From NCBI RefSeq assembly GCF_000002425.4, contig NC_037264.1, positions 8,848,886-8,912,885 of the forward strand: DNA of 64,000 bases. The letters run 5' to 3'. The first letter of the stretch is position 1. Every line of letters starts with the position of its first letter. The notes under the pieces were generated by a model. The model saw only the letters and a list, made by a program, of their open reading frames with translations. It did not search any database and was not told the DNA's origin. Source of the stretch: Physcomitrium patens (Eukaryota > Streptophyta > Bryopsida > Funariales > Funariaceae). Shown here in pieces: positions 3,755-54,469 of the stretch. Both the position numbers and the translations under genes were made by a program.

Positions 3755-4281
3755 TGTCAAGGATATAAACCTTAAAGAATTAAAATGTCAATATATTCTT
3801 GAGTTAGTTGAAAAGACAAAAATGACTCAAAGATGATATAGTATTAAATTAAAATGGCTATTGCCAAAGACAAGAAGACTAGAAGGTCTTGAAACAAGAC
3901 TAAAGACTAGAAAGGTATTGAAAAGAATAAAGAAGGCTTCAATCTTGCCTCTATATATACTCTTAATTAGGAGCTATATGGCAATTTCCTATAGGACTTT
4001 CAAAACGTGTTGACTTTATAAGACATATATCATAACTTACAAGACAAGTTTTCTATATGTATACCACATAATTAGCTTGTTATTCAAGCTACCAATATGT
4101 GATTAACTTGTTGATCAAGTATCTAATCTATCAATCAACTACAAATACATATAAAGTCAAAGCAAAATCTGTAAAGCTTCTAAAAAATTAAATATTAAAT
4201 ATTATGGAATAAATCTATTTTTATCTATTTCTGCTTAATCATATAGATAAATATAATAATAAATATGTATATCCATTATCG
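3755..4281 (-). repeat. Degenerate 5' LTR of the old Ty3/gypsy element
   Basis: It begins at TGTCAAGGATATAAACC and follows the LTR of the young element in order: the AAATGGCTATTGCCA block, AAGAAGGCTTCAATCTTG beside a CTCTATATATAC TATA region, the TTGACTTTATAAGACA block, and a closing AATCATATAG...ATTATCG. Because gag lies to its left on the minus strand, this is the 5' LTR. The outer end is blurred by the adjoining second-family LTR. Confidence 0.75.
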
Positions 4282-5530
4282 TGTTGTAATATGACTATAT
4301 GATGAAAGATGATAAAATGGATCTTATTATAGAAGAGCCAAGTTAAAAGATAAAGTAGAAAAATATAGATAAAAGATAGGAAGGTAGTAAAACTTTTAGT
4401 AGTAGTAGTACTTTTTATAAAAGTGACTTCTATTTACTTTATAGGGCAAAAAATAAGGCAAAATAAGATAGATTAAAAAAATAAATTATATAAGTATCTT
4501 TAAGAAGAAGTTAAGAATAAATTCTAGAAAAAATTACCTAGAAAAACTAGATATTGATACCAAAGGAGGGCCGGTTATCAACCTAGATCGACCTTGAGGC
4601 ACAAAATCGAGCACCTATAGCAACTCGGGGGTCTTTTTGCAAATTGGAGAATAGGATTTGAGAGCAAACTAGATAATATTTCCATGAGCATTGATTTTGG
4701 GCGATTTGGATTTGTAATGACTTTATAAGAGCTTTACAAAGTCAAGTTTGTTTTCAAATGACTTGGTTTTGTGAAATAAAATAGGTTTGATATTTCTAAT
4801 GATTTCAAGAGTTTTGTTACAGATCTATAGGTGAAATTTTGTGAATTAATGGTTATAGTTGTGTTTAATATGTATTGTGAATCTTAGCTTGATCTAATGG
4901 TTGAATTGAGGGTTATTGAGGTTTAAGTGGGTCAAGGTCTCAGAAAATAGAATTTTAGGTCCAGTGAGCATTTTTAAGATTTCTTGCAATCTATTAGTTA
5001 GATTGGAGTGAAATTTATATATGGAGATATTAGCCTTATTTTTCTATGTATATGAGAATTTTGACATCAATTGAATAGTGAAAAGGAGAGATATTGGCTC
5101 TGAGAGATTGGCATCAAGGTCAGAGATGGAGGCCGGCCAATATTCAAGCACATTTTTGAGACTATCTTCTATTTGATAATTTCGATTCTTTTCAAATTTT
5201 TTTGTACTTGTTATCAACTTAATTTTTAAAAAGCATACAAATTTGAGTTAAGATCAATGGTTCATTAATTAATAATTGAGGTTTAAATTTATTGTAGAAA
5301 TTACTAGGATTTGATTTAAGTTTAGAGTTTGGTTTAGGATTTGGTTAGAGTTTGATTTAGGATTTAGGATTTGATTAGGATTTGATTTAGGATTTAGGTT
5401 TTAATTAGGATTTTATTTAGGATTTAGGTTTTAATTAAGGTTTAATTTAGGATTTAAGGTTTTATTTGAGTTTGTTTAGGATTTAAGATTTAATTAGTTT
5501 TTTGCCCAAATTTTGAATGAAGTCTAATAG
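4282..5530 (+). repeat. Second-family long LTR (family C), left part
   Basis: Starts TGTTGTAATATGACTATATG. The reverse complement of 54778-56380 matches it in order: a CTTATTATAGAAGAG block, a TAGAAAGGTA block, a TTTACTTTATAG block and the GATTTAGGATTTG-rich tract at 5310-5500. The young element interrupts it after 5530 and it resumes at 11911. Total length without that insertion is about 1.5 kb, close to the 1.6 kb of the inverted copy. It has TG...CA ends and no coding capacity, so I call it an LTR, solo or attached to a lost internal region. Confidence 0.7.
5310..5500 (+). repeat. Degenerate GATTTAGGATTTG tandem tract inside the family C LTR
   Basis: About 190 bases consist of variants of GATTTAGGATTTG and GATTTGATTAG repeated with 6-14 base spacing. 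The unit resembles a degraded plant telomere-type TTTAGGG repeat. The inverted family C copy has the same tract at about 55130-55350 as CAAATCCTAAATC-type units, so it belongs to the element and was not a later local expansion. Confidence 0.75.
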
Positions 5531-5535: not shown

Positions 5536-6087
5536 TGTCAAGGACAAAGACTCGATGAGGAAAAATATACACCAAAAGGCTATCTCGATATAATAAGTCA
5601 AAATATAAACAAGTAGGTATATTAAAAGGAAACTGGAATGGCTATTGCCACAAGACAAGAAACTAAAGACTCTTGAACCTGGACTAGAAGCAAGAAAGGA
5701 GTTGACAAGAGTGAAGAAGCCTTCACTCTTGTCTCTATATATACTATCTAACTAGGGACTACGTGGCGACGTTCTATAGGACCTCCAATATGTGTTGACT
5801 TTGTAGGACACATGCCTTGACTTACAAGGCAAGTTTTTCTACGTGTGGGCCACATAGTTAGCTTGATCTTCAAGCTAACAACATGTGTGGCACATGGCCA
5901 ACTTGTTGACCACGTTTCTAATCCAAAAAGTCAATTAAAGACACCTATGAAGTCAAAGCAGTGTCTAGGAAGTTTCTAAGAAGCTTCTATATTAAATATT
6001 ATATAATTAACTTACTTTTATCTACTTTTACTTATTTCTACCTATTTCTATATGTAATTATTAGCTTACATGATTATGGCCGTGACA
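5536..6087 (-). repeat. 3' LTR of the young element
   Basis: 552 bases with TGTCA at the left end and TGACA at the right end, a perfect 5-base terminal inverted repeat. Near-identical to 11356-11905. In the element's sense, the U3/R region has a TATA box at 5743-5736 followed at once by a perfect 13-bp hairpin (5704-5733). Confidence 0.95.
5704..5743 (-). promoter_or_regulatory. LTR TATA box and adjoining 13-bp hairpin (3' LTR copy)
   Basis: 5704-5716 (GACAAGAGTGAAG) and 5721-5733 (CTTCACTCTTGTC) are perfect inverted repeats around a 4-base loop. The TATATATA box at 5736-5743 lies 2 bases from the stem, upstream in the element's sense. The hairpin would therefore sit at or just before the transcript start. 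The same arrangement is at 11522-11561 in the 5' LTR. Confidence 0.75.
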
Positions 6088-6105
6088 TTACCCCCCCTTC
6101 TAGAG
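6088..6105 (-). other. Polypurine tract of the young element
   Basis: Read on the minus strand, an AGAAGGGGGGG run followed by TAA directly precedes the 3' LTR start TGTCACGG. The decayed copy has TTTAGAAGAAGGAGTAA at the same place (54454-54469). This is the usual plus-strand primer site for reverse transcription. Confidence 0.85.
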
Positions 6106-6128: not shown

Positions 6129-6551
6129 TCATATGTTGAGAAAATCTATGATGCGACGAATTGTATTCGTCACATACTCTGATCTCTGTTCTCTTCGAAG
6201 ATGATTGATAGGGCCTCTCAACCATCGGTAGTGTCCCATACCAGGGCGGGAAGACCACCCAGTTATTTGATCATTATTGAGGCCTTCATAACTTCCTTCG
6301 AATAGAATATTTGGAACACCATCAGGAGTTGTTCCTACCTCTAGTAAAATCACCAAACATCGAGAGTCCCTTCCCAAATCATGATACCAAACGCGTTGTA
6401 TCTCACCATCTGTTCGAGGAAGAACATGTCGTTCTTGAAGATCTTCATCTCGATTGCATCGTCTTGAAAGTTGTGACAATCGTAATGTCTCGTCCGACAG
6501 GTCAGCAAACGAAGGTTCTTGAGTTGAATCCGCTGGTTGTTGGCTCTCCAT
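6129..6551 (-). CDS. Extra ORF after pol, 140 aa, unknown function, conserved in the family
   Basis: An intact 140-codon ORF starting at ATG 6551-6549, in the same sense as gag and pol. It lies 94 bases beyond the end of the chromodomain reading and 24 bases before the polypurine tract. I recognise no domain. The protein is hydrophilic and charged, with an acidic, Gln/Ser-rich N-terminus and a compact middle (CLVILLEVG, residues about 64-72) followed by DGVPNILFEGSY, WSSRPGMGHYRWLRGP and a basic C-terminal third. No signal peptide or membrane helix is evident, so it does not look like an envelope. The old plus-strand copy carries the same reading at about 53999-54410, with matching blocks (QCLVILLEVG, NILFEKSY, WSSHP) and no indel I can see across about 130 codons, although it has acquired several stops. 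Retention across two such different copies suggests a real element gene, perhaps accessory or regulatory; that role is inference. Confidence 0.75.
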   Translation of the reverse strand: MESQQPADSTQEPSFADLSDETLRLSQLSRRCNRDEDLQERHVLPRTDGEIQRVWYHDLGRDSRCLVILLEVGTTPDGVPNILFEGSYEGLNNDQITGWSSRPGMGHYRWLRGPINHLRREQRSEYVTNTIRRIIDFLNI

Positions 6552-6645
6552 CTAATTAGCATCACAAATGTAAAGAAGTTACAAACAAGGATAGGAAATT
6601 GAATGTTATCTTGCCTCAATCTTGTCTCTTTTATAAGAGAGATTT

Positions 6646-6840
6646 TCATCTTGGTTTTGATGGATGTCGTTGATGAAAAACTTTGACTTTAGCTGATGCA
6701 TTTGCTAGATTCCTGGATGGCTCCCATGTGCGTTTACTAATATCATATCCGCGCCAATGAACAAGATATTCCAGCTTATTTCGGCGCCGCCTTGAGTCTA
6801 ATATCTTTTCCACCTCAAATTCTTCATTATTATCTACTTC
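6646..6840 (-). pseudogene. Integrase C-terminal chromodomain, displaced by a 1-base deletion
   Basis: Minus-strand translation from about 6838 to the TGA at 6648-6646 gives a chromodomain: FEVEKILDSRRRR near the start, then YLVHWRGYD and TWEPSRN. These are the aromatic and acidic positions typical of chromoviral integrase tails, which target chromatin marks during integration. It is out of frame with pol, whose frame stops at 6842-6840 after a short Pro run. In the old copy (about 53700-53890) pol and chromodomain read through at this point, so one base appears to have been lost here. Confidence 0.85.
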
Positions 6841-9800
6841 TATGGAGGCGGTGGCATTTGTCTTCTTCCTTGTATATCCACTGTCTTATATGGTTCAAGA
6901 AGAGATACGTGGAATACAGGATGGATCTTCATTGACTCCGGTAGATGTAACCGATATGCAACTGGGTTGATCTGTTCAGAAACAGAAAAGGGGCCAAGCC
7001 TACGATAGTCCAACTTGTCACAAGGTCGAGTAGTCTTGATATTGCGACGAAGTAGCCATACCTTATCACCCACATTGAGTTGTGGTTGCTCCTTACGATA
7101 TAGATCTGTATTTATCTTTTGTCGTTCTTGAGCTTCCTTCAATTGCGTCTTCATTATTGCATGTAACTCTGACAACCGATTTGCCATATCTTCTGCTGCA
7201 GGATTATCAACTTTTGAAAAATCAAAAGTATCAAGTCGTGGATGATAGCCATAATTGGCAAAGAAAGGTGTTTGTTGCATGGAAGAATGTATTGTATTAT
7301 TATAAGCAAACTCTGCCAATGGCAGAAGGGTTGTCCAATCATCTTGTTGATAGTTGATAGTACACCTTAAATATTGCTCCAAGACTTGGTTTACGCGCTC
7401 TGTTTGTCCATCAGTTTGAGGATGGAAAGCCGAAGATAGCTTTATGTCCACTTTTAAAATCTTGAAAAGGGTCCTCCAAAATCTTGACACAAATTGAGTT
7501 CCCCTATCTGATATGATATCTTTAGGTAATCCATGATAGCGATAGATATTATCAATGAAAAGCTTAGCTGTTTCTTCACCTGTGATAGATTTTGTACATG
7601 GCACAAAATGTGCCATCTTGGTGAAACGATCTACTATCACAAATATAGAATCATAAGATCTTGAGCTTGGAAGATCTGTGATGAAATCCATAGAAACAGA
7701 AGACCATGGTTGTTCTGGTATAGGTAATGGCTGAAGAAGTTCGTAAGGTCGATGACGAGGAATTTTTGATCTTGAACAAATATCACATGATTGTACAAAG
7801 TCTTTGACTGACTTCCACATTTGTGGCCACCAAAAATCTCTTGATATGAGTTCCAAAGTCTTATTATATCCAAAGTGCCCTGCTGTTGGAAAGTCATGAC
7901 GTGCTTGAAGAACACGTAAACGTGCTTCTCCTTCTGGAACATATAGGCGTCCTTCAAAATATAATAGATTATTCTTGAACTCGAACTTAGAAGGATCATG
8001 AGACTTGGAAGAATTATTCTCGATATCATAAACAAGAGGGTCTGAGGACATACTGGACTGGATTTGCTTGAGAAAAGTTGAATCAACAGTCAATGTTGAT
8101 TTCATTGCTCGGAGATGAAATTGCTCCGGTTTCAAGAGGACCGTTCTTTGTTGCTCAAAAGCTGCATCTCCTTCTTTTGGTGCAAAATAAGAACGTCTAG
8201 ATAGGGCATCGGATAAACCTTGTTGTTTTCCTGGCCGATAAGTGATAATGAACTCGAATCTTGACAAAGACATACTCCAACGAGCTTGACGACGATTCAA
8301 CACGCGTGCTGACATGAAATACTCGAGGTTCTTGTGATCTGTATACACAGTGACTGGACTAGAAGCGCCTTCTAGATAATGATGCCATTCTTGAAAGGAA
8401 TCCACGATCGCAAGAAGTTCTTTATCGTGGATCTCATAATTGATCTCGGCTGCTGAGAATTTTCTTGAATGAAAAGCTATCGGATGGAGTTTGTCATCTG
8501 TTCCCATTTGTGATAAAACTGCACCCAAGGCAAAATCTGATGCATCTGTTTCCATAAAAAATGCCTTGGAAAAGTCAACACGATATAAGACTAGTGCAGA
8601 AACAAACGATGTCTTCAAGGCTTTAAATGCTGCTTCCGCTTCTTGATTCCATTGAAATTTATCTTTACTAGTCAAGCGTGTAAGTGGAGCTGCAACTCGT
8701 AAAAAATCTTTGATGAAGATCCGATAGTAATTGGCAAATCCCAAGAAACATTGGACATCTCTTACCGTCCTTGGAATCTTCCAATCCACGATTGTTTGGA
8801 CTTTCTTAGAATCCATCATGAGACCATCATTTGAAATGATGTATCCTAAAAAGTCAACTTGAGTAGTGTGAAATACACACTTTTCCATCTTGGCGTACAA
8901 TCCTGCATCTCTAAGTTTTTGTAATATTTGACGAACATGTATTTCATGTTCTTCGACGTTCTTGGAGTAGATCAGGATATCGTCTAGATAGCAGACGACA
9001 AAATTGTCTAAGAATTCACGAAATATATCATTCATGAGATGTTGAAAAGCAGCTGGTGCATTCGTGAGTCCAAAGGGCATGACATTATATTCGAAATGTC
9101 CATACCTGGTTCGAAACGCAGTCTTCCATTCATCTCCTTCTTTGATCCGTACTAGATTATATGCTCCTCTTAGATCTATTTTTGTATAGATCTTAGCTTG
9201 ATTCAACTGGTCAAGGAGTCCTGATATCAAAGGTAATGGATACCTGTTCTTGATTGTGATCTTGTTGAGTCCTCGATAATCAACACACATTCGTAAAGAT
9301 CCATCTTTTTTCTTTATGAATAGAATTGGAGCTCCTGCTGGAGATTTTGAATGGCGTATGAAATTCTTCGCTAAATTCTTGTCAATATATGTCTTGAGTT
9401 CAGCCATCTCATCTTGCGATAAACTGTAAATTGGTCCAAATGGTGGCTGAGTTCCTTCCTTGAGGTCGATTGAACAATCATATGGACGATGCTCAGGAAG
9501 AATATCTGCATTCTTTTTCTCAAAAACGTCTTGATACTCCTGATATTGACTTGGAATGCCACTTGAAGTCTTTACGTTTTCAGAAATAGGTGCAGCATAA
9601 ATAGCAAAAGTTGATCCTTCTTTTGCTGCGTGTATAAATGCTTTTGCACCTATCAGTACGGGTTTTACTGTACTAGACTTATAATTTTTTACTTGGTTCG
9701 TAGAACTATTAATATCGCTTTTGGAAAAGTCAAGTTTACGCGAATTCCAATCTATTCGAGGGTTATATTTTTCTAGCCAGGATAAACCTAAAATAACTGG

Positions 9801-10133: not shown

Positions 10134-10160
10134 GGTCCCTATTGTAGCTGGACGAATCCG
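10130..10160 (-). other. gag-pol junction, pol in the -1 frame
   Basis: The gag frame stops at TAG within CTACAATAGGGA (sense). The pol frame is open across the same bases one nucleotide back, so a -1 shift upstream of the stop would fuse gag to pol. The same CTACAATAGGGA is kept in the decayed copies at 50628-50639 and at 1-25 (minus). I see no classical slippery heptamer in the gag frame just upstream. Confidence 0.7.
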
Positions 10161-11143
10161 TTTTCCGACATGTTGTCTTCTTTGACCGTCGTACCCCTCA
10201 TTTTATAGTTGCGTCGTTTCTTTAGACAATGTTGAGCAGTGTGCTTAGGTTCTCCGCAATATAAACATAATCCTTCTTGACGACGACGAATCTTTTCTTG
10301 CTCAGTTAGAGGTTTAAAACGTACCGCGTCAATTTGCATGTCTTCTACTTTCGAATGTACGTTTGGCAAAGATGTTGATGTTGCCATTGAGTAATAACGT
10401 TGAGGTTCCCGTGAATGATTCTCAGATCGAAATTCAAAAAGTCGATTATCACATTTTACCGCAAAATCGATTGCTTGACTCAAAGTTTGAGGATCAGGTA
10501 AGTTGAGCATCAATTTCTTTACTTCGTATTGCAATCCATAAAGAAATTGACTAATGAGTGCAGCATCATCCCACTTGATGTCAATTGCAAGTTGTCAAAA
10601 TTGTGAAGCATATACTGTTACTGAGCGATTTCCTTGTCGCAAAATTCGGATCTTATTTGTTGCAACACAAGTTGCATCGTGTTCACCATACATAGATCGA
10701 AACTCCGCCAAAAAAGCTTCCAAATTGTCCAATATTGGATTTCGTTGTTCAAGAAAAGACGAAAACCATGATAATGCAGAACCAGAAAGTAGAGTGCCAA
10801 TAAACCTGACTTGTGATCCTGGAGTTGGATAGCTTTGCGGTTGAAGTTCAATTGCCAATTGTACTTGATTGATGAACCCTCGAAACTTAGATCTCGTACC
10901 ATCAAATTTCTCAGGTAAGGCAATTCTTGGTTCTCTAGTGCTTATAGGGTGTTGTACAATTGGAGAAGGAACTTGATTTGTTGTAGATGTTGAAGCAGCT
11001 CCGATCATCTCTATATCTCCACTTTCTGCTATTCTTGTTCTTTCATGTGTTGGTAAATTGAGTTGATGCATCGCAAGCATTAACTCCCTCATTTGCTCTT
11101 GCATTTGTGCCATTGCACTCTTCATTTCAACAAGTTCTGCCAT
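10139..11143 (-). pseudogene. gag: gag of the young element, interrupted by one nonsense codon
   Basis: ATG at 11143-11141 opens MAELVEMKSAMAQ. The reading continues to a TGA at 10597-10595, then on in the same frame to TAG at 10141-10139, about 334 codons in all. It has an N-terminal coiled-coil-like Met/Gln-rich stretch, the gag core (PEKFDGTRSKF, LSGSALSWFSSFL, FRSMYG), and a C-terminal CX2CX4HX4C zinc knuckle (CLYCGEPKHTAQHC, about 10250). TGA in place of a likely CGA Arg codon fits cytosine deamination. Gag forms the particle and packages the RNA; this copy would give only the N-terminal part unless the stop is read through. Confidence 0.9.
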
Positions 11144-11355
11144 AATGACACTAAGAAGAAAAATTTGTTTGATATTGCTCAAGACAAAAGAAAAAAAAGA
11201 CTTGATAACAAAGAAGATACTAAGAACAATATCAGTTTAGAAGTGGGTAATCCGCAAACTTCTAATACGCTTATGTCTTGTCAAGAGAAAGGGGTAATCC
11301 ACTCTTACTCAAGAAAAAACAAAGCTCTGATATTGTAAGTGGACTCTTGTCAATC
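11144..11355 (-). other. 5' leader of the young element, candidate primer-binding site
   Basis: About 212 bases lie between the 5' LTR and the gag ATG. In the element's sense, TATCAGAGC (minus strand of 11324-11332) matches the core of the usual plant initiator-Met tRNA primer site, but it starts 23 bases from the LTR and the preceding TGG is not present, so the primer assignment is uncertain. The leader also has repeated GGATTACCC/TGGATTACC motifs (plus-strand GGGTAATCC at 11247-11255 and 11292-11300). Confidence 0.55.
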
Positions 11356-11905
11356 TGTCAAGGACAAAGACTCGATGAGGGAAAATATACAAAAAGGCTA
11401 TCTCGATATAATAAGTCAAAATATAAACAAGTAGGTATATTAAAAGGAAACTGGAATGGCTATTGCCACAAGACAAGAAACTAAAGACTCTTGAACCTGG
11501 ACTAGAAGCAAGAAAGGAGTTGACAAGAGTGAAGAAGCCTTCACTCTTGTCTCTATATATACTATCTAACTAGGGGCTACGTGGCGACGTTCTATAGGAC
11601 CTCCAATATGTGTTGACTTTGTAGGACACATGCCTTGACTTACAAGGCAAGTTTTTCTACGTGTGGGCCACATAGTTAGCTTGATCTTCAAGCTAACAAC
11701 ATCTGTGGCACATGGCCAACTTGTTGACCACGTTTCTAATCCAAAAAGTCAATTAAAGACACCTATGAAGTCAAAGCAGCGTCTAGGAAGTTTCTAGGAA
11801 GCTTCTATATTAAATATTATATAATTAACTTACTTTTATCTACTTTTACTTACTTCTACCTATTTCTATATGTAATTATTAGCTTACATGATTATGGCCG
11901 TGACA
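11356..11905 (-). repeat. 5' LTR of the young element
   Basis: 550 bases, TGTCA...TGACA. It differs from the 3' LTR by six substitutions (five transitions, one transversion) and one 2-base indel near 11382. TATA box at 11554-11561 and hairpin at 11522-11551, as in the other LTR. This LTR would drive the genomic transcript leftwards. Confidence 0.95.
11522..11561 (-). promoter_or_regulatory. LTR TATA box and adjoining 13-bp hairpin (5' LTR copy)
   Basis: Perfect inverted repeat 11522-11534/11539-11551 with a 4-base loop, next to TATATATA at 11554-11561. This is the promoter copy that would start the element's transcript. Confidence 0.75.
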
Positions 11906-35311: not shown

Positions 35312-38022
35312 GAAATTAAAAAAAGGAAGAAAAAGACGAAGAACGGACTCAGTGAGTAGATGAAAGTAGATACGAAGCGGCAGCTCCAACGACGAGTTAG
35401 AATGCACCACGTTTCAGCCTTCCATCTAAGGGCCGACACTACTAACCTACCAGGTTAGGGCGAAGGGGGGCACGGGCGGGGCGACGAGGAGGATGCTTTT
35501 ACGTTTTAGTTTACTTTTCCATCGTTTTCTTTTTCTTTTTATTTGTCCTGTGTGAGTGTGTGTTCCTATTTGCTTCCTCCTCCATTTAATAGGCCCTGAC
35601 GGGCGTGCCTCTGTTTGGCCGCGGAGAGCCGGAGAAGCGAGGCTTTAGAGCGCAGCGCAGTGAGGCGGGGCAAGGCGCGGCCGAAGTGTTATTTAGAAAG
35701 GAGACATCCGCGACGCTAGAATTTGCACAAATGCAGGAAGACGACTCCTCCTCCTGCTGCTGCCATTGCTGTTGCTGCTGGTGTGTGGGGTGGTGATATT
35801 TGAATGCGTTGTCTTCAGGCTGAGCCGTCAAGACCCACTCTCCCACCTTCAACGGAATCATGGGAGCTGTGCCGCAGCGCAGGTGTAGCCTCGCCTTCTT
35901 CTGAGGTAGTCGTGCGCTGTCGCCTGCATCGTCTGGGTGTTTAATTGTCAGGTCGGACTGGCCTTGTCCCCGTGGACAGAGTTGGAGGAGGAGGTGCGAG
36001 GAGAAAGTTGCTGGCTTGAGACCATCCGGTTCGCGTTCGTGTTACGTGTTGCGACTTGAGAGAGCCAGGGTGAGGGAGTGGTGCCGGAGTGCGTCTGCAT
36101 TTTTATTTCTGCTGCCGTGTATCTACCGAGTGCGGCAAGGGTGAGAGATTGTCTGCGTGGCTTTGGATTCGAGAGCTGGTGGAGGCGCAGAATCTGGAGG
36201 TGATCGCCGCCGCAGCAAGTCGGTGATTTTTTTAGTGTTTTTTCTCTTAAAGATAAGGTGGAGAATCTTCATTTTGCTGAAGCGACCCTGGAGAAAATCG
36301 TTCGAGTCTAGGTTTTAGTAGGATACCGCGAAGTGATTTTTCGAAGATAACCTGAAATTTATGCGAAATCACGCCGTATGGTTGGTGCTCTGTAAGATGG
36401 TGAAAGAGATTTAATGGGGACTAGGGCTACAGCAGGAATAAGGTGCTGATTGAGTGTCATCACCACGAGTGTGCGGCTTCTAAGCCAGCGCTGCGTCTCC
36501 CTCAGGGAGAAAATTATATTCCGTAGACGCGATCACCTGCTGTCGATGTCTTTGAATCTAAGTCCTCAAGTAGTGTGTTTTGCGGATTCGGTGTTCAGTG
36601 TCCCCTGAGAGAGCAAGCCACGATGGTTGTACTGTACCAGCGCAATAGTTACTGCCTGAGCTTCCTGTATGAGCAGGAGATCTCTCGCCAAGCTTTGTGC
36701 ATCCCCGAAGTGAAAGCTTGGTGACGGGGGAGTGCTGTTTCTAGCATACTTTCACTCTCGAAGTAAATCTAGGAACCCTGTCCGCGGTCTATAAGCACTA
36801 AGATGCTGCGCTTCGTCGCTACATCCCCCCGGAGTTAACACTGTGTGATCCACCGAAATGATATCTGATCCTGGAGTCTACAGTGACACCCGCGGCCATC
36901 CCAGCATGGCTATGTTTTCGATGTAAAAGCATACGAGCTCTGATCTATTCCAACGCCTCGTCGTTTGGATGACCTTCGAGCCAAGCATCAAAGCGACAGT
37001 GAAGCTCTTGTTTTGTGCCAATGAAGAGATTAGTGTCCTGGAGAGACTGAAGTGATGGTGTCGTAGAGGACTTTAGGAAAGCTAGTGCAGCGACTGGGTG
37101 CCACTGAGATTTGAAACTTTTTGAGACTTGCGTTTGACAGTTTTCTATGTTAGTTTCCGTAATTAATGTTAGTGGGTGTGCGTCCTCTCGTGATCAGTGC
37201 TGGAGACGATGATGACGGAGCTTTGGCTGGGAGAAACAACAATTCAAGCTCGCAGTAGGACATTGATGCGCAGCTGGCGGATTGAGACTAACCAGTTTTA
37301 TGTCAGGTCACAAGGAAAAATATCCTCGTAGTGGCACTTCTCACAGTAAGGATCCTGCAGCTGACCCGTGACGTCACGATTATTATTCGCCTTCGCTGTT
37401 GCCGAAGTTCAAGTTTAGAGAATCAAGTAAGTTGACGCCAAAATATAATTACTAGCGAGTTTCAGTGGAGGGATGAAGAGATTGAGTTACTAGAGTAATC
37501 AGGATGCGATTTTACTAGAACAAACTAAGTTCTAGCTTCGCTGGCGACACTGAGCTTTACAACTCTCGGGTCGTCTTCAAGGACCAAGGCGCGTATCGTT
37601 TTGATTGCGCTTATCCCCTCGTATTTCTGTGTTATTGTTCGGTTTCTAGCGCAGCATTGATGGATCTCTCTTGCTTTTGAATGCGACTCGACCTAGTGCG
37701 GTTGAATATTTTGTACTTGGAAGCCCTTGTAATAAGCTATCATAACGGTCCGTTACCTGCTATTGAGAACCGTCAAAACAAGAGATAAGAGGCGGCAGCT
37801 TATTCCTGTGCAGATCCTCGCGACGGCCCCACCACACCGTGATCAAATGAATCGGGGTTTTTATTAGGCATGATGGTGAATCTAATATGATCAAGTTGCA
37901 AACATTCGGCTGTGTTATGCCGATGTCTACCTACAATGCGTCTGAACTTCTCATGAACGGCTTCAAATGACACTGGAAGTGCGTTGGGACTCGGCGCGTT
38001 GCAACTCTTTGAGCTCCTTTTC
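35312..38022 (+). other. Long 5' leader region of the AHL gene
   Basis: About 2.7 kb of moderately G+C-rich sequence with no ORF above 91 codons, running without a break into the AHL first exon. Many upstream ATGs precede the coding start (for example in 36400-37300). It contains a CTG/CTCC-rich tract at 35744-35781. One or more 5'-UTR introns are likely but cannot be placed from sequence alone. The upstream ATGs would lower or regulate translation if they remain in the mRNA. Confidence 0.45.
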
Positions 38023-40378
38023 ATGGTAGGAATGCAGGAATCAGCTGACGCTGCGAATCGCTCGGGGGGCGGAGGCATGGGTAGCCCCCAAAGAGCAGGG
38101 ATGGCGAGTGGGGTCGGGCATGGGTTGCACACTGCGGCACCTGTGCGACATTCGCCACCTCCATCCTCGTCCCCATCACCTTCACCAGGGATTACTCCAT
38201 CGCAAAGTGCGCAAGGGGGCGCACCAGCTGTGAGCACGCCCGTGCCTGAGGCCGGTCCATCAGGTCTTCATCCCCATCCAATCATGGCTGTAGCTCCTCC
38301 AGCAAGCTTAGGCATGAGCTTAGGCATTGTTGGCACCTCAATCACTGGACCCAGGAGTGCAAGCGGGGGCGAGCAGCCTCTCAAGAGAAAGAGGGGAAGG
38401 CCTCGTAAATTTTCAACTGGTTCTGAATTTTCTCCTGGAACACCAGGAGCTGGGTATCCTGTTTTTCCAGCGATAATGCCGGCTCCCTCTTCGCCATATA
38501 CGCCGTCTCCTGATAAGCGAGGGAGAGGCCGACCTACAGGCTCTGGGAAGAGGCAACAGCTAGCTGCTCTTGGTAATTTTCTTGTAATCTATCGCACTTA
38601 TTCATGTATTGGTTTATTCTTCTGTAGTGGTTCCCTTCATGTGGTTATTATATTTTTCTGGCATTCTCCTGTAGCTAACCATGCCAGTATTATTTGTTGC
38701 TGTGTCAGGGGTTGTGTTAGCGGGCACTGGGCAAGGTTTTACGCCTCACATATTGACTGTGAACACTGGGGAGGTACAGCCTCTAGACCGTACTATTCGT
38801 TGTTCGATTCTTTCTGTTTCCATGTATCGCGGCATAATGGATATGGTTGACTTAGTTGTGGTGGTCAAAGCGTTCTAATCTATTGACATTATCGTACATG
38901 AATTCGCAAGGTATTCAGAATTATATTTCTTGTGTCGCAGGATGTCGCTACTAAAATCATGCAGTTTGCACAGCACGGACCACGTGCAATGTGTGTGCTG
39001 TCAGCCAACGGTGCCATTTCCAATGTGACATTACGTCAGCAGTTATCGTCGGGAGGCACTGTGACGTATGAGGTATGCATCCAACTTATCGCTACGTTAT
39101 CCCAAGTGAAGATACTTTGCCATGGACTTCTGCTGATTCTAGTTGATTTTTTGTGTCTTACCATGGAAATACGCAGATAATCCGCACTTGTACTTACAAA
39201 CACACAGACATCGTGTGTGTATTCGCATTTGGCATGCTGTAGGGCTTGATAAGTGCCCTAGCAGTCAATGCTAGTCCTAGTGTGGTGGTTTTTACTTTGC
39301 CTCTGTTAGACACGCAACATAGATTTTGTAATGAGGTTGTAAGTGAACCATTTGGACATGCAGGGTCGCTATGAGATACTTTCTTTGTCTGGTTCTTATC
39401 TGCCTACGGACCTTGGAGGTGGCGCACGACAACGAACTGGGGGCCTTAGTGTTTCTTTGGCTGGCAGTGATGGGCGAGTCATTGGTGGAGGTGTTGCTGG
39501 AATGCTAACTGCGGCGTCTCCCATTCAGGTATCGGATATGTTTCTGTTTAAAATATTGAGATTAGAACGAGAAGAAATTGACCTCGGTACAGCTCCTTTT
39601 TGCTATCTTCTATCAAGAAAATTTTTGCAGTTTGATCGGGTGCAGAGATCGTGTAATTATTTTTGGAACCATCCTAGGTTACATATATTTTCCCGTACCT
39701 TTCCTTCTTTGTAATCATAATTCATGATCGCTTGGTTATGTTAATTCCTACCAAAATCATGTGATAAAATAATTTTACTAAGTTTCGACCGCATCTTCCT
39801 CTGGTGTGCCACAGGTGGTTGTCGGGAGCTTTCTTTCCGACGCTTACAAATCTCAACCGAAGTCCGATTCCCCACTTAGTTCAACTCCAGGAGGCTCATC
39901 TGGAGGAGGGTTTGTTCCTGGTTTAGGACTTGGAGGCCCACGTCCTCCACCTCTTAGACCTGAAATGAAACCAAGTCCTGGTCTCTTTTCAAATTCCAAA
40001 GGTTGGCTTCCTTCTTGTGTCTTATATACCGATCTCTGTTAATTACTGTGTACTCTGATGCTTTCCTCAATTCTTCTGCAAACTACAGGCTGAAGGACTT
40101 AAATATGATCTTCGATTTCTGTCGGACGGTGAGCCTGGTCGGATTAGTGTACACGTTGTTGTACGCCTATTACCTTTGCTCGAAGTCTGATTGAGTTGTG
40201 TGTGGATGCAGCACCCAGTCCTCAGCAGACATCACCAGCGCCTCCTTCCCCAACCGGCCAAGTATCTGCGCAGAGGCCTCAAACCATGGGCTTGTTTCAA
40301 CCGATGGCAAGCTGGCAACCGCCCGCTCTTGGAGATGGTCGAAGGACTGACATCAATATCTCTTTGCCAGGTGGATGA
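38023..40378 (+). CDS. AHL: AT-hook motif nuclear-localised (AHL) protein, six coding exons
   Basis: Exons 38023-38572, 38709-38773, 38941-39072, 39364-39528, 39815-40001 and 40212-40378 join in frame (422 codons with stop); all five introns are GT-AG. The first ATG is 38023; 38032 is also in frame. The N-terminus is Gly/Ser/Pro-rich. Two AT-hooks follow, RGRPRK at residues 124-129 and RGRGRP at 166-171. The PPC/DUF296 domain spans about 188-312 (GFTPHILTVNTGEDVATKI, GPRAMCVLSANGAISNVTL, GRYEILSLSGS, GGLSVSLAG). The C-terminus is Pro-rich and ends TDINISLPGG. AHL proteins bind AT-rich DNA in the minor groove through the hooks and form trimers through the PPC domain, acting in the nucleus in growth regulation. 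Two hooks plus an intron-rich gene place it in the intron-containing AHL clade. The canonical GRFEIL core reads GRYEIL here. The last donor (AAAG|GTTGGC) is weak but keeps phase. Confidence 0.93.
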
Positions 40379-48837: not shown

Positions 48838-49356
48838 TGTCATAGATATATATATTTATTCTAATAATTACCTATATGATTAAGTAAAAGTAAATTTATT
48901 TCATAATATTTTCTAAAAAAGCTTTTTAGAAGCTCCATAGATGCTGCTTTGATTTTATATGTATTTATAGTTGATTGATAGGTTAGATACTTAATCAATA
49001 AGTTAACCACGTATAAATAACTTATAGGATAAGCTTATTATGTCATGCTTATATAAAAAACTTGTCTCGTAAGTTAAGATACATGTCTTGTAAATTCAAT
49101 ATGTTTTAGAGGTCCTATAAGACATTGTCACATAGCTCCTAGTTAAGAGTATATATAAAAGTAAGAGTGAAGCCTTTTTCACTCTTATCAATTTCTTTCT
49201 AGTCTTTAGTTTTATTTTTAGACTCTTTAGTCTTCTTATCTTTAGTAAATCTTATTCCAATTTAATATTATATCATCTTTGAATGAATTTTTAGTCTTTT
49301 TGAATGACATAAGAGTATATTTATGTTTTAATTCTTTAAGATTTATGTCCTTGACA
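48838..49356 (+). repeat. 5' LTR of the decayed plus-strand element (B)
   Basis: Begins TGTCATAGATAT and ends TCCTTGACA, 519 bases. It follows the young element's LTR in order (TTGACTTTATAAGACA-type, AAGAGTGAAGCC hairpin, CTTTGAATGA blocks) with many C-to-T and G-to-A differences. TATA region and hairpin lie at about 49150-49192. Confidence 0.85.
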
Positions 49357-50640: not shown

Positions 50641-53600
50641 TTGTGTAGTTGGAATCATATGCAATATCTAATAAAGGTTCTATTTTCTCAATAGATCTGT
50701 TATCTTATTTTAATATAGATATATATATTTAAGATCTAAAAATCACAAAAATTTACATTATTAGATTCAAGAGCCTCAACCTGTTTTATAAACAAAGACT
50801 TTGTGAAGAAATAAGAAATATTTTTAATCAAAAAAACTAAACTTGTACATATATAAGTCATAGATAGTCACTTGTTGTTATTTAAAGACATTATTTATGA
50901 GACTGTTCTTTCAAATGTAGCAATTAAAGATCATAATAGTATAATAATATTTCATGTGATAAGATCTCTATTTAATTTAATTATTTTAGGATTATCTTAA
51001 TTAAAAAAATAATCCTCAAATAGATTAGATTTTTTATAATTTTATGTTTTTTTTTGTAATTTAATCTAAAATTTTGATAGTGAAATAGAAATAAATAAGC
51101 TAAGTACATCCAAATTCTTATTAATTGATGTAAGAGCTTTCATGCATGCTGCAAAAGAAAAGCCATATTTTACTATATATGCCACACTCATTACTAATGA
51201 AAACATGTCTAGTGATATTTATTATCTATATTAAGATTTTTTAGATATTTTTGAAAAAAAAAAATACAGATATTTTTCCAAAGCATTGGTCCTATGACTG
51301 TATAATTAATTTATAAAAAAGAGCTCAACTACTATTTGGATTAATCTAGAGCTTATTGTAAAATGAATTAGCTGTACTAAAAGAATAAATAGCTAAAAAC
51401 TTCATATGCTATTTGATATGTTGAGTAAAAGCTCCTATCTTATTTGTGAAAAAAAAAGATGGATCTTTGCAAATATACATATACTATCAAGGACTTAATA
51501 AGATAACTATTATGAATGATGTCTTTTATAAATTTTTCAATGATTTTATTGTCTATTATTTTAAAAAATATTCTAATCTACTCTAAGAATATAAAAAAAT
51601 ATTAATTTCATATTTTTCATGTGTTACAAAAATTTAAAGATATAAGATTATATGCAAAGATGGAAAAGTGTATATTCTACACTACTCAAGTTGATTTTTT
51701 AAGATACATCATTTCCAACAAAGGATTAATAATGGATCCTAAGAAGGTCCAAATTATCATGGATTGAAAGGTATCAAAAATAGTCAAAGATATTTAATAT
51801 TTTTTTAAAATTTACCAATTATTATTAAATCTTTATGAAAAACTTTTTTCAAATTGTGGCTCTCCTTATATGTCTGACATATAAAGACAAACTTAAGTAG
51901 AGCAAAGAAGTACAAACATCTTTTAAAGCCTTAAAGACATCATTTATTTTTACACCAATTTTGTATTGCATTGATTTTTTTTAAGGTGTTGTTTATGGAG
52001 ATAGATGCATCGGACTTTGCTATAGGTGATGTTTTATCACAAATGAGAATAGATGATAAGCTCTACCTAGTTATTTTTTATTCTAAGAAATTTTTGGCAA
52101 TTAAAATTAACTATAAGATCTACAAAAAAGAGTTTTTTATAATTATAGATTCATTATAAGAATGGCATCATTATGTAAAAGGCACTTCTAGTCCAATTAT
52201 TATGTATACAAATCAAAAGAATCTCAAATATTTTATGTTGATATGTGTTTTGAATTGTAGCCAAGCTTATTAGAGTATATATTTATCAAGATTTAATTTC
52301 AAGATTACTTATAGATCCAATAAAATAACAAGGCTTATTAAATGCCCATTTTGACGTTCTTATTTTGTACCAAAAGAAGGAGATACAACTTTTCATTAAC
52401 AAAAAATAATTTTTTTAAAGCCAAAGCATTTTCATCTTCGAGCAATGAAATCAACATTGACTATTGATTCAACCTTTGTTAAATAAATTCAATCAAATAT
52501 ATCCTATGATCATTTTATTTAAGGTATTAAGAATCATTTTTTTAAGCCTCATGATACTTCCAAATTTGAATTTAAAATAATTTATTTTATTTAGAAGGAA
52601 AATTATATATCCCAAAAGACAAAACATAATTATGTATTCTTTAAGCTTGTCATGGCTTTCTAGCAATTAGATGTTTTGGATACAATAAGATTTTAGAGCT
52701 AATATTAAGAGATTTTTAGTGGCCTCAAATGTAAAAGGTAATTAAAGGCTTTGTATAATCATGTGATATTTTTTTAAGAACAAAAATTCCTCATCATCAA
52801 CTTTATAGACTTCTTCAACAATTACATATTCTAGATCAACCATGGTCTTCTATTTTTATGGATTTTATTATAGATTTTTCAATCTCAAGTTTGTATAATT
52901 TTATATTTATAATAGTAGATTTTTTTATATCAAAATGATATATTTTATACCATGTACAAAATCTATTACAAGTAAACAAACATCTAATTTTTTCCTTGAT
53001 AACATCTATTGCTATCATGGATTACTCAAGAATATTATATTAGATGAGGGAACTCAATTTTCATCAATATTTTTGAAAATCCTTTTTAAAATTCTAAAGA
53101 TAGATATAAAGCTCTCTTTGGCTTTTCATCCTCAAATTGATAGGCAAATATAACAAATGAATTAAATTTAAGAGTAATATTTGAGGAATACTATTAATTA
53201 TCATCAAGATGATTGAACAACTCTTTTGCCATTGGCAGAGTTTAGGTACAATACTTTAGTATACTTTTCTATTAAACAAACATCTTTTTTTTCCAATTAT
53301 GGTTATTATCTATGGTTTGATATTGTTATTTTTCAAAAATTGATAATCTTACAATAGAAGTTTAGCAAATTGTTTGTTAGAGTTACATACAACAATAAAG
53401 GCATAATTAAAGGAAGCTCAAAAATAAAAAAAGATCAATGTAGATGCCTATTACAAGGAATAGTCATAATTCAATATAAGTAATAAGATATGGCTACTTT
53501 GTCACAATATTAAGACTAGTTGTCTTTGTGGCAAGTTGGACTATTATAGGCTTGTACCTTTTTCTATTAGTGAACAAGTCAATTTTGTTACTTATTGATT

Positions 53601-53998: not shown

Positions 53999-54410
53999 CT
54001 ATAGAGATAGAGAACCAATAACTTACATATTTAGTTCAAGAGCTATTATTTTCTTACTTAACAAATGAAACATTGTAATTGTCACAACCTTCAAGAGAAT
54101 ATAATCAAGATGAAGATTTTCAAGAACAACATGTATTTCCTCAAATAGGTGGTGAGATATAATGTATTTGATATGACGACCTTAGAAGAGACTCCCAATG
54201 TTTGGTGATTTTATTAGAGGTAGGAATGACTCTTGATGGTGTTTTAAATATTTTATTTGAAAAAAGTTATATAGGTGTCAACAACAATGAAATAACAAGG
54301 TGGTCTTCTCATCCTAATATAAGATACTATTAATGGTTGAGAAGAATTATTAATCATCTTTACAGAGAATAAAGATTAGAATATATAGCAAACATATTTG
54401 CCACATCTTG
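53999..54410 (+). pseudogene. Copy of the extra post-pol ORF in element B
   Basis: Plus-strand translation aligns with the 140-residue ORF at 6551-6129 along its length: LTNETL, DEDFQEQHVFPQ, RDSQCLVILLEVG, LNILFEKSY, EITRWSSHP, INHLYRE. It has several stop codons but I see no indel. Its position between chromodomain and polypurine tract is the same as in the young element. Confidence 0.75.
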
Positions 54411-54469
54411 AAATTCCTCAATATATGATAATTGTTTCTTATAAAACTTGTCTTTAGAAGAAGGAGTAA

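What the first reader, a model, noticed from the sequence alone, without database searches (positions are those of the whole stretch)
6129..6551. Conserved extra ORF after pol in a chromodomain retrotransposon
The young element has an intact 140-codon sense ORF between the chromodomain and the polypurine tract. The old copy (53999-54410) retains the same reading with no visible indel, although it is riddled with transition mutations elsewhere. It has no membrane segment, so it is not a typical envelope. An additional soluble protein conserved across old and young members would be a family-specific accessory gene, possibly a regulator or packaging factor. Seen: ORF, position, alignment. Inferred: selection and function.
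Basis: partly seen in the sequence, partly recalled or inferred. Interest (0 to 1): 0.7.

Follow-up and report, generated by a model that had tools for sequence, protein, structure and literature searches.

The report
Spliced extra exon in moss retrotransposon
A very abundant jumping gene, probably of the moss Physcomitrium patens, carries a conserved extra protein segment that RNA splicing can join to its integrase in place of the part that reads chromatin, so the element may make two kinds of integrase.

Summary
The ORF is real, sense to its element (window minus strand, 6551-6129, 140 codons) and under purifying selection: two ORF3 lineages in this genome differ by 26 synonymous and 6 non-synonymous fixed changes (random expectation 9.8 synonymous; dN/dS 0.10); shared old/young differences agree (20/5, 1 stop). 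It is not universal: of 20 old copies chosen on integrase, 10 keep all or part, 4 lack it, 6 are uninformative.

The unexpected result is splicing. Seven genomic copies lack exactly 510 nt (window 7061-6552), from AAG|GTATGG in the integrase to CTAATTAG|ATG, joining "NVGDK" in frame to ORF3's first Met. They form 6-7 separate groups on trees; 2087 comparable matches keep the intron. The excised part encodes the integrase SH3-like domain and chromodomain. ORF3 is thus an alternative 3' exon of pol, at least in some RNAs. No homologue or usable fold was found; no other plant genome could be searched. A swapped integrase tail is my leading reading; a free regulator from another spliced RNA is the main rival.

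The parts
6129..6551 (-). ORF3: 140 codons, alternative 3' exon of pol / extra ORF
   Evidence: purifying selection
6552..7061 (-). 510-nt facultative intron GTATGG...CTAATTAG; holds most of the integrase SH3-like domain, the chromodomain, the pol stop and the spacer
   Evidence: absent from 7 genomic copies with the exact junction; length
7056..7064 (-). 5' splice site AAG|GTATGG (codons Lys|Val-Trp), phase 0
   Evidence: 36 of 37 young copies identical (these were picked with a query that spans the site); boundary
6552..6600 (-). pyrimidine-rich 3' splice-site region ending CTAATTAG|ATG
   Evidence: AG directly before the start codon in 28 of 30 old copies (picked on ORF3)
6645..6840 (-). 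chromodomain (in another frame than the long pol ORF in this copy)
   Evidence: translation; Pfam Chromo E 2.4e-15 in the homologous copy L007
6840..10133 (-). pol ORF: protease, RT, RNase H, integrase, SH3_Tf2-1
   Evidence: Pfam
10139..11182 (-). gag region, split into two ORFs (11182-10595 and 10534-10139)
11356..11905 (-). 5' LTR
5536..6087 (-). 3' LTR
6091..6101 (-). polypurine tract AGAAGGGGGGG
   Evidence: read directly
11303..11308 (-). possible second donor GTAAGA in the leader
   Evidence: consensus scan; present in the window element and in 3 of 3 other leaders read; no junction copies found
54007..54428 (+). decayed ORF3 in the old copy (start ATA, many stops, one 1-nt gap)
   Evidence: ends counted on the alignment
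53485..53493 (+). decayed donor in the old copy (AAGATATGG)

Best explanation
ORF3 is an alternative 3' exon of pol in a Tcn1-type chromovirus, most likely the RLG1 family of Physcomitrium patens. Unspliced genomic RNA encodes an integrase ending in an SH3-like domain and a chromodomain. When the 510-nt intron is removed (donor at the start of the SH3-like domain, acceptor right before ORF3's ATG), the same Pol ends instead in the 140-residue ORF3 domain. SHOWN: selection on ORF3; exact GT-AG junctions in seven integrated copies; in-frame fusion; loss of SH3 and chromodomain from it. INFERRED: that these copies come from spliced RNA, that the RNA is translated, that the fusion is the selected product, and that it gives the element a second integrase form without a heterochromatin-reading module (altered targeting, or a non-integrating Pol role in particles).
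For: Selection: 32 fixed A/B differences = 26 synonymous, 6 non-synonymous (codon positions 10/1/21; null 9.8 +/- 2.6 synonymous, 0 of 5000 reach it), dN/dS 0.10 in frame against 0.65 and 3.1 in the other frames; old/young shared differences 20 syn, 5 nonsyn, 1 stop (null 6.5, 0 of 5000). Splicing: identical GT-AG junction in 7 copies, reversed-pattern control 0. Three of the seven were followed to both ends: both LTRs, gag and pol present (one, L090, also lacks about 98 nt elsewhere in pol), own 5-bp target duplications GTATG, CTTGC, ATGTT. Six or seven separate spliced-only groups on two trees, one copy carrying the B-type ORF3/LTR. Phase 0 on both sides; fused frame open across the junction (391, 183 and 160 codons in the three of seven with intact ORF3). 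The intron removes the SH3_Tf2-1 and Chromo matches (L007 against L101). Acceptor AG in 28 of 30 old copies.
Against: No RNA or protein data were available. Spliced copies are rare, 7 against 2087 intron-bearing matches at the same stringency, which fits a minor or accidental product as well as an mRNA not meant for packaging. The donor lies in a motif that also encodes integrase residues Asp-Lys-Val-Trp, so its conservation need not be for splicing; its silent third base (27 of 27 old copies) is not unusual, since 10 of 69 comparable sites, the donor included, are fully kept. The 36 of 37 young copies with the donor were picked with a query spanning it. ORF3 keeps a start codon (17 ATG, 12 ATA, 1 ATT in 30 old copies), which a pure C-terminal exon would not need. 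No ORF3 likeness to the replaced domains (hhalign probability 0.1). Nearest-neighbour results favour unspliced copies partly because the pool held more of them (20 or 56 against 6). The A/B selection test cannot tell a fused from a free product.
Confidence: 0.57

Rival explanations
1. ORF3 is made as a free accessory protein from a subgenomic RNA spliced from the 5' leader to the same acceptor, in the manner of retroviral env/Rev or Cer1 CERV; the pol-ORF3 splice is a by-product of that acceptor.
For: ORF3 begins with ATG directly at the acceptor; the first codon is ATG in 17 and ATA in 12 of 30 old copies; a GTAAGAG donor-like site in the leader is present in 4 of 4 leaders read. A protein from a spliced Gypsy-element RNA with a role in RNA export is known from Cer1 (PMC10309623, abstract read).
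Against: No genomic copy with the leader|ORF3 junction (0 matches at up to 3 mismatches), though a small subgenomic RNA need not be packaged and only this one donor was tested; the in-frame, phase-0 fusion with pol would be a coincidence (about 1 in 3).
Confidence: 0.32
2. The junction copies come from aberrant splicing of no use to the element; ORF3 is translated by re-initiation after the pol stop.
For: Spliced copies are only 7 against 2087; the pol stop overlaps an ATG (ATGA) in the window.
Against: The acceptor abuts the ORF3 ATG exactly and its AG is kept in 28 of 30 old copies; the spacer between pol stop and ORF3 holds stops in the ORF3 frame and other ATGs.
Confidence: 0.12
3. The seven deletions are not splicing but recurrent template switching or deletion at short homology.
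For: Two shared bases (AG) at the two ends.
Against: Seven copies with exactly the same GT-AG ends in at least six tree positions; another deletion in one of them (L090, the same copy as L098) has no GT-AG ends.
Confidence: 0.03
4. ORF3 is a chance or captured open frame without function.
For: No homologue in any library searched; absent from some old copies.
Against: Strong purifying selection in two comparisons.
Confidence: 0.02

Closest known systems
RLG1, the dominant Gypsy/chromovirus family of Physcomitrium patens (PMC7466625, passages read)
   Same: Genome of 470 Mb, very many copies, Gypsy with chromodomain, young copies present; the paper reports RLG1 as the most abundant TE with 5092 complete copies and expression in protonema.
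   Different: The passages read mention no third ORF and no splicing of RLG1 ('ORF' occurs 0 times in the main text). Identity with RLG1 was not tested by sequence.
Tcn1-clade elements, e.g. SM-Tcn1 of Selaginella (PMC2864245, sections 5 and 6 and passages read)
   Same: Tf1-like SH3 domain and chromodomain in pol; no obvious tRNA primer site in the leader.
   Different: SM-Tcn1 is described with gag and pol only. The legend of its Figure 3 explains an 'add. ORF' of unknown function for some element; the figure is not held, so I could not see which.
Additional sense ORFs between pol and 3' LTR (aORF-3S, 'env-like'), Bagy2 and others (PMC7264820, passages read)
   Same: Position and sense; splicing reported for Bagy2.
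   Different: No transmembrane segment; the splice shown fuses ORF3 to integrase inside pol. 'Chromovirus', 'moss', 'Physcomitrella' and 'chromodomain' occur 0 times in that review.
SM1-Galahad of Selaginella (PMC3350952, passages read)
   Same: Short ORFs downstream of gag-pol in a chromodomain element; there the chromodomain itself lies in a separate short ORF.
   Different: Here the chromodomain is in pol and no likeness of the extra ORF to it was found.
Cer1 CERV of C. elegans (PMC10309623, abstract read)
   Same: Novel Gypsy-element protein made from a spliced RNA.
   Different: No sequence link tested; mechanism of the moss protein unknown.
Spliced plant elements Ogre and EVADE (PMC12786077, passages read)
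   Same: Facultative introns in plant LTR elements.
   Different: In EVADE the intron removes the protease region to make a short gag RNA; here the integrase tail and chromodomain are exchanged. Ogre details were not read.

Membership tests
Ty3/Gypsy chromovirus | PR-RT-RH-IN order with a chromodomain at the IN C-terminus | tested here: met
Tcn1 clade | RT/IN phylogenetic position with Tf1/Sushi-type elements | not tested
   SH3_Tf2-1 match only; no tree with named elements was built
Tcn1 clade | no tRNA-type primer-binding site | tested here: inconclusive
   leader starts GATTGACAAGAG, no TGG right after the LTR (read by eye); self-priming not tested
RLG1 of P. patens | sequence identity to the published family | not tested
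env-like aORF-3S | transmembrane segment | tested here: not met
   maximum KD19 1.25
env-like aORF-3S | sense ORF between pol and 3' LTR | tested here: met
env-like aORF-3S | made from a leader-spliced subgenomic RNA | tested here: inconclusive
   no leader junction copies for the one donor tested; no RNA data
Rev/CERV-like export regulator | exports unspliced genomic RNA | not testable with these tools
   needs experiments
integrase SH3/chromodomain relative | profile similarity of ORF3 to the replaced C-terminus | tested here: not met
   hhalign probability 0.1; alignments very shallow, 11 and 7 near-identical rows

The most novel reading that the evidence does not exclude
The element uses alternative splicing to make two integrases: one with a chromodomain that reads heterochromatin, and one in which a different conserved domain replaces it, giving a switch between insertion-site choices (or between an integrating and a non-integrating Pol) within one family.
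Probability: 0.3. Interest if true: 0.88.

Novelty: new variant of a known kind. Interest (0 to 1): 0.72.

Why it matters
Chromodomain elements are thought to choose heterochromatin through their integrase tail. A conserved spliced exon that swaps that tail, in a family making up almost half of the class I TE space of this moss (PMC7466625, passage read; if the family is RLG1), would make target choice of a retrotransposon a matter of RNA processing, and would be directly testable in a model plant. It also points to a gap in surveys: the large plant survey counted extra ORFs only from 250 codons up (PMC6317226, passages read), so a 140-codon exon would be missed.

Tried and rejected
Homology: Pfam, PHROGs, NCBIfam, PDB sequences (single and profile), IMG/VR (two scans) and GTDB contigs (one scan) gave no significant relative of ORF3; the lowest E-values were 0.26 (Pfam), 0.13 (PHROGs) and 0.14 (PDB profile, tail-anchored insertion factors, covering only the charged N-terminal part), taken as chance. 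No other plant genome could be searched. Fold: two single-sequence AlphaFold2 models of window proteins, full ORF3 and residues 45-140, mean pLDDT 50.1 and 54.7, pTM 0.41 and 0.40: strands plus a C-terminal helix at low confidence; Foldseek of the second against PDB, best E 0.52, nothing usable. hhalign against the integrase tail: none.

Rejected as evidence: the low indel and transversion rate of ORF3 in 30 old copies, because those were picked by ORF3 similarity. In 20 old copies picked on integrase, ORF3 is NOT more constrained than its surroundings: indels 33 per kb against 8 in the chromodomain, 25 in each spacer and 42 in the LTR; transversions spread evenly over codon positions, 247/242/223. 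That count includes copies that lack or have lost the module and are forced onto it by the aligner (L111 and L118 had no ORF3-region alignment at all), and is what neutral decay after insertion would give. The '3576-aa' frame is an N run. Within-lineage dN/dS (0.39 in A, 1.9 in B) is read as decay after insertion. Row dropped: L068 from ORF3 comparisons (deletion).

Not answered: a count of young copies lacking the ORF3 module (server busy).

Full report
OBSERVATION. The LTRs differ at 6 sites plus one 2-nt gap over 552 columns, with AAATC on both flanks. Pol carries protease, RT, RNase H, integrase and an SH3_Tf2-1 domain; the chromodomain follows in another frame in this copy but in the same frame in copies such as L007. 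Gag is split in this copy. The old copy on the plus strand (5' LTR remnant 48885-49242, alignment reaching 54760) is 65-73% identical over the internal parts; its ORF3 stretch lies at about 54007-54428, with ATA for the start codon, many stops and one 1-nt gap.

HOST. The window lies in an assembly of 470,438,890 bases in 101 contigs. Size, the abundance of this family, and the description of RLG1 in PMC7466625 (passages read) point to Physcomitrium patens; no tool named the organism, the chromosome number is recalled, and identity with RLG1 was not tested by sequence.

SELECTION. To avoid choosing copies by ORF3, I took the 150 scored matches (of 21,510 candidates) to the integrase tail and fetched 37 of the 150, about every fourth row. 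ORF3 is intact in 21 of 37; 14 have stops, one lacks the ATG, one has a deletion. The 37 fall into two ORF3 lineages: A (29 copies, plus the window) and B (7 copies); L068 was dropped. They are 6-19% apart in ORF3 and 7-17% in the LTR, but only 0.3-4% in integrase tail and chromodomain, so the 3' part has recombined. Between 18 intact A (window included) and 4 intact B copies, pS is 0.380, pN 0.051 and dN/dS 0.10; the other two frames give 0.65 and 3.1. Of 32 fixed differences 26 are synonymous; substitutions of the same types thrown at random give 9.8 +/- 2.6, and none of 5000 trials reaches 26. A second comparison, of differences shared by at least 70% of 30 old copies (picked on ORF3) against young ones, gives 20 synonymous, 5 non-synonymous and 1 stop, null 6.5 +/- 2.2, 0 of 5000; leaving out C/G-to-T/A changes it is only 5 to 2, and 148 of 5000 trials reach that. 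ORF3 is thus a true coding sequence. Within lineages dN/dS is 0.39 and 1.9, as expected from decay after insertion.

DISTRIBUTION. Of 20 old copies picked by their integrase core from 40 scored of 9393 candidates, seven hold a full-length, decayed ORF3 (L103, 104, 105, 113, 116, 117, 119), three a partial one (L106, 114, 120), four (L109, 110, 115, 121) have no ORF3 module, the pol stop being followed within about 25 nt by the usual 3' end and LTR, and six are truncated or not alignable there (L102, 107, 108, 111, 112, 118). Taken together these 20 show no extra constraint on ORF3 (see Tried and rejected). The module was gained or lost within the family's history; the direction is not settled, and young copies without it were not counted because the server did not answer.

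SPLICING. In the first ORF3 search, 150 of 20,471 candidates were scored; 10 had a stop and 3 had an open frame running upstream beyond 140 codons (391, 183 and 160). These three lack exactly the same stretch. The ends are AAG|GTATGG in the integrase and CTAATTAG|ATG before ORF3, a 510-nt GT-AG interval at window 7061-6552. A genome-wide pattern search for the junction (up to 3 mismatches, so biased to young copies) found seven copies, with none for the reversed pattern; all seven have the same boundaries. The three followed to both ends have both LTRs, gag and pol, and distinct 5-bp target duplications; one of them also lacks about 98 nt elsewhere in pol, without GT-AG ends. The other four were seen only within 1.5 kb of the junction. 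On a tree with 20 unspliced copies the seven form six spliced-only groups (L099 and L101 pair with support 0.91); on an ORF3+LTR tree with 56 unspliced copies, seven. One, L096, has the B-type ORF3 and LTR. Two shared bases at the ends make recurrent deletion a poor alternative. An equally long pattern for the unspliced acceptor matches 2087 places, so about one comparable copy in 300 stems from spliced RNA.

WHAT THE SPLICE DOES. Both sides are in phase 0, so '...EQPQINVGDK' runs straight into 'MESQQPAD...'. Pfam finds SH3_Tf2-1 (327-388) and Chromo (411-461) in the pol fragment of L007, and only the integrase core, below its curated cut-off, in the fused frame of L101. The spliced RNA would therefore give a Pol whose integrase tail and chromodomain are exchanged for ORF3. 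Three of seven junction copies still have an intact ORF3 in the fused frame; four have stops or a frame change within ORF3.

MECHANISM. I think ORF3's selected role is as an alternative integrase tail (0.57), because donor, acceptor and frame fit and because this RNA appears to have been reverse transcribed repeatedly. Against this, a start codon is kept (17 ATG, 12 ATA, 1 ATT in 30 old copies), a donor-like GTAAGAG is present in 4 of 4 leaders read, and a leader-spliced RNA would give a free 16-kDa acidic protein (pI 5.35), in the manner of CERV of Cer1 (PMC10309623, abstract read). No leader junction was found for that donor, but such a short RNA may never be copied. The two products are not exclusive.

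KNOWN OR NEW. Seven literature searches, passages of PMC7466625, PMC6317226, PMC3350952, PMC7264820, PMC9033089 and PMC12786077, and sections 5-6 of PMC2864245 show no third ORF or splice in the moss element. Most subscription papers and all supplements were out of reach, and a figure of PMC2864245 marks an 'add. ORF' that I could not see. Facultative introns in plant elements (Ogre, EVADE, Bagy2) and sense ORFs after pol are known kinds; exchange of a chromodomain by splicing I did not find in these searches. On rechecking I lowered the leading reading from 0.58 to 0.57, because the donor count rests on copies picked with a query spanning the donor.

Noticed in passing
window 3853-4237: LTR-like fragment, about 75% identical to this family's LTR; no internal match beside it in the window-wide comparison.
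   Followed up: no
window 5282-5495: Array of irregular TTTAGGATT-like repeats just beyond the 3' LTR of the young element.
   Followed up: no
window 37984-38850 (+): Plant-like ORF with two RGRP stretches like AT-hooks, recalled as AHL-type; no Pfam match at E 0.001.
   Followed up: partly
L057, L060, L063, L076, L077, L080, L083: Recombinant young copies: A-like integrase tail and chromodomain, but a B-type ORF3 and LTR 6-19% different.
   Followed up: yes
L109, L110, L115, L121: Old copies with the same chromodomain region that lack the whole spacer+ORF3 module.
   Followed up: partly
window 11303-11308: GTAAGA in the leader, present in 4 of 4 leaders read, possible second splice donor.
   Followed up: partly
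window 6350-6649 (-): 99-codon frame whose ATG overlaps the pol stop (ATGA) and which runs into ORF3 in another frame.
   Followed up: no
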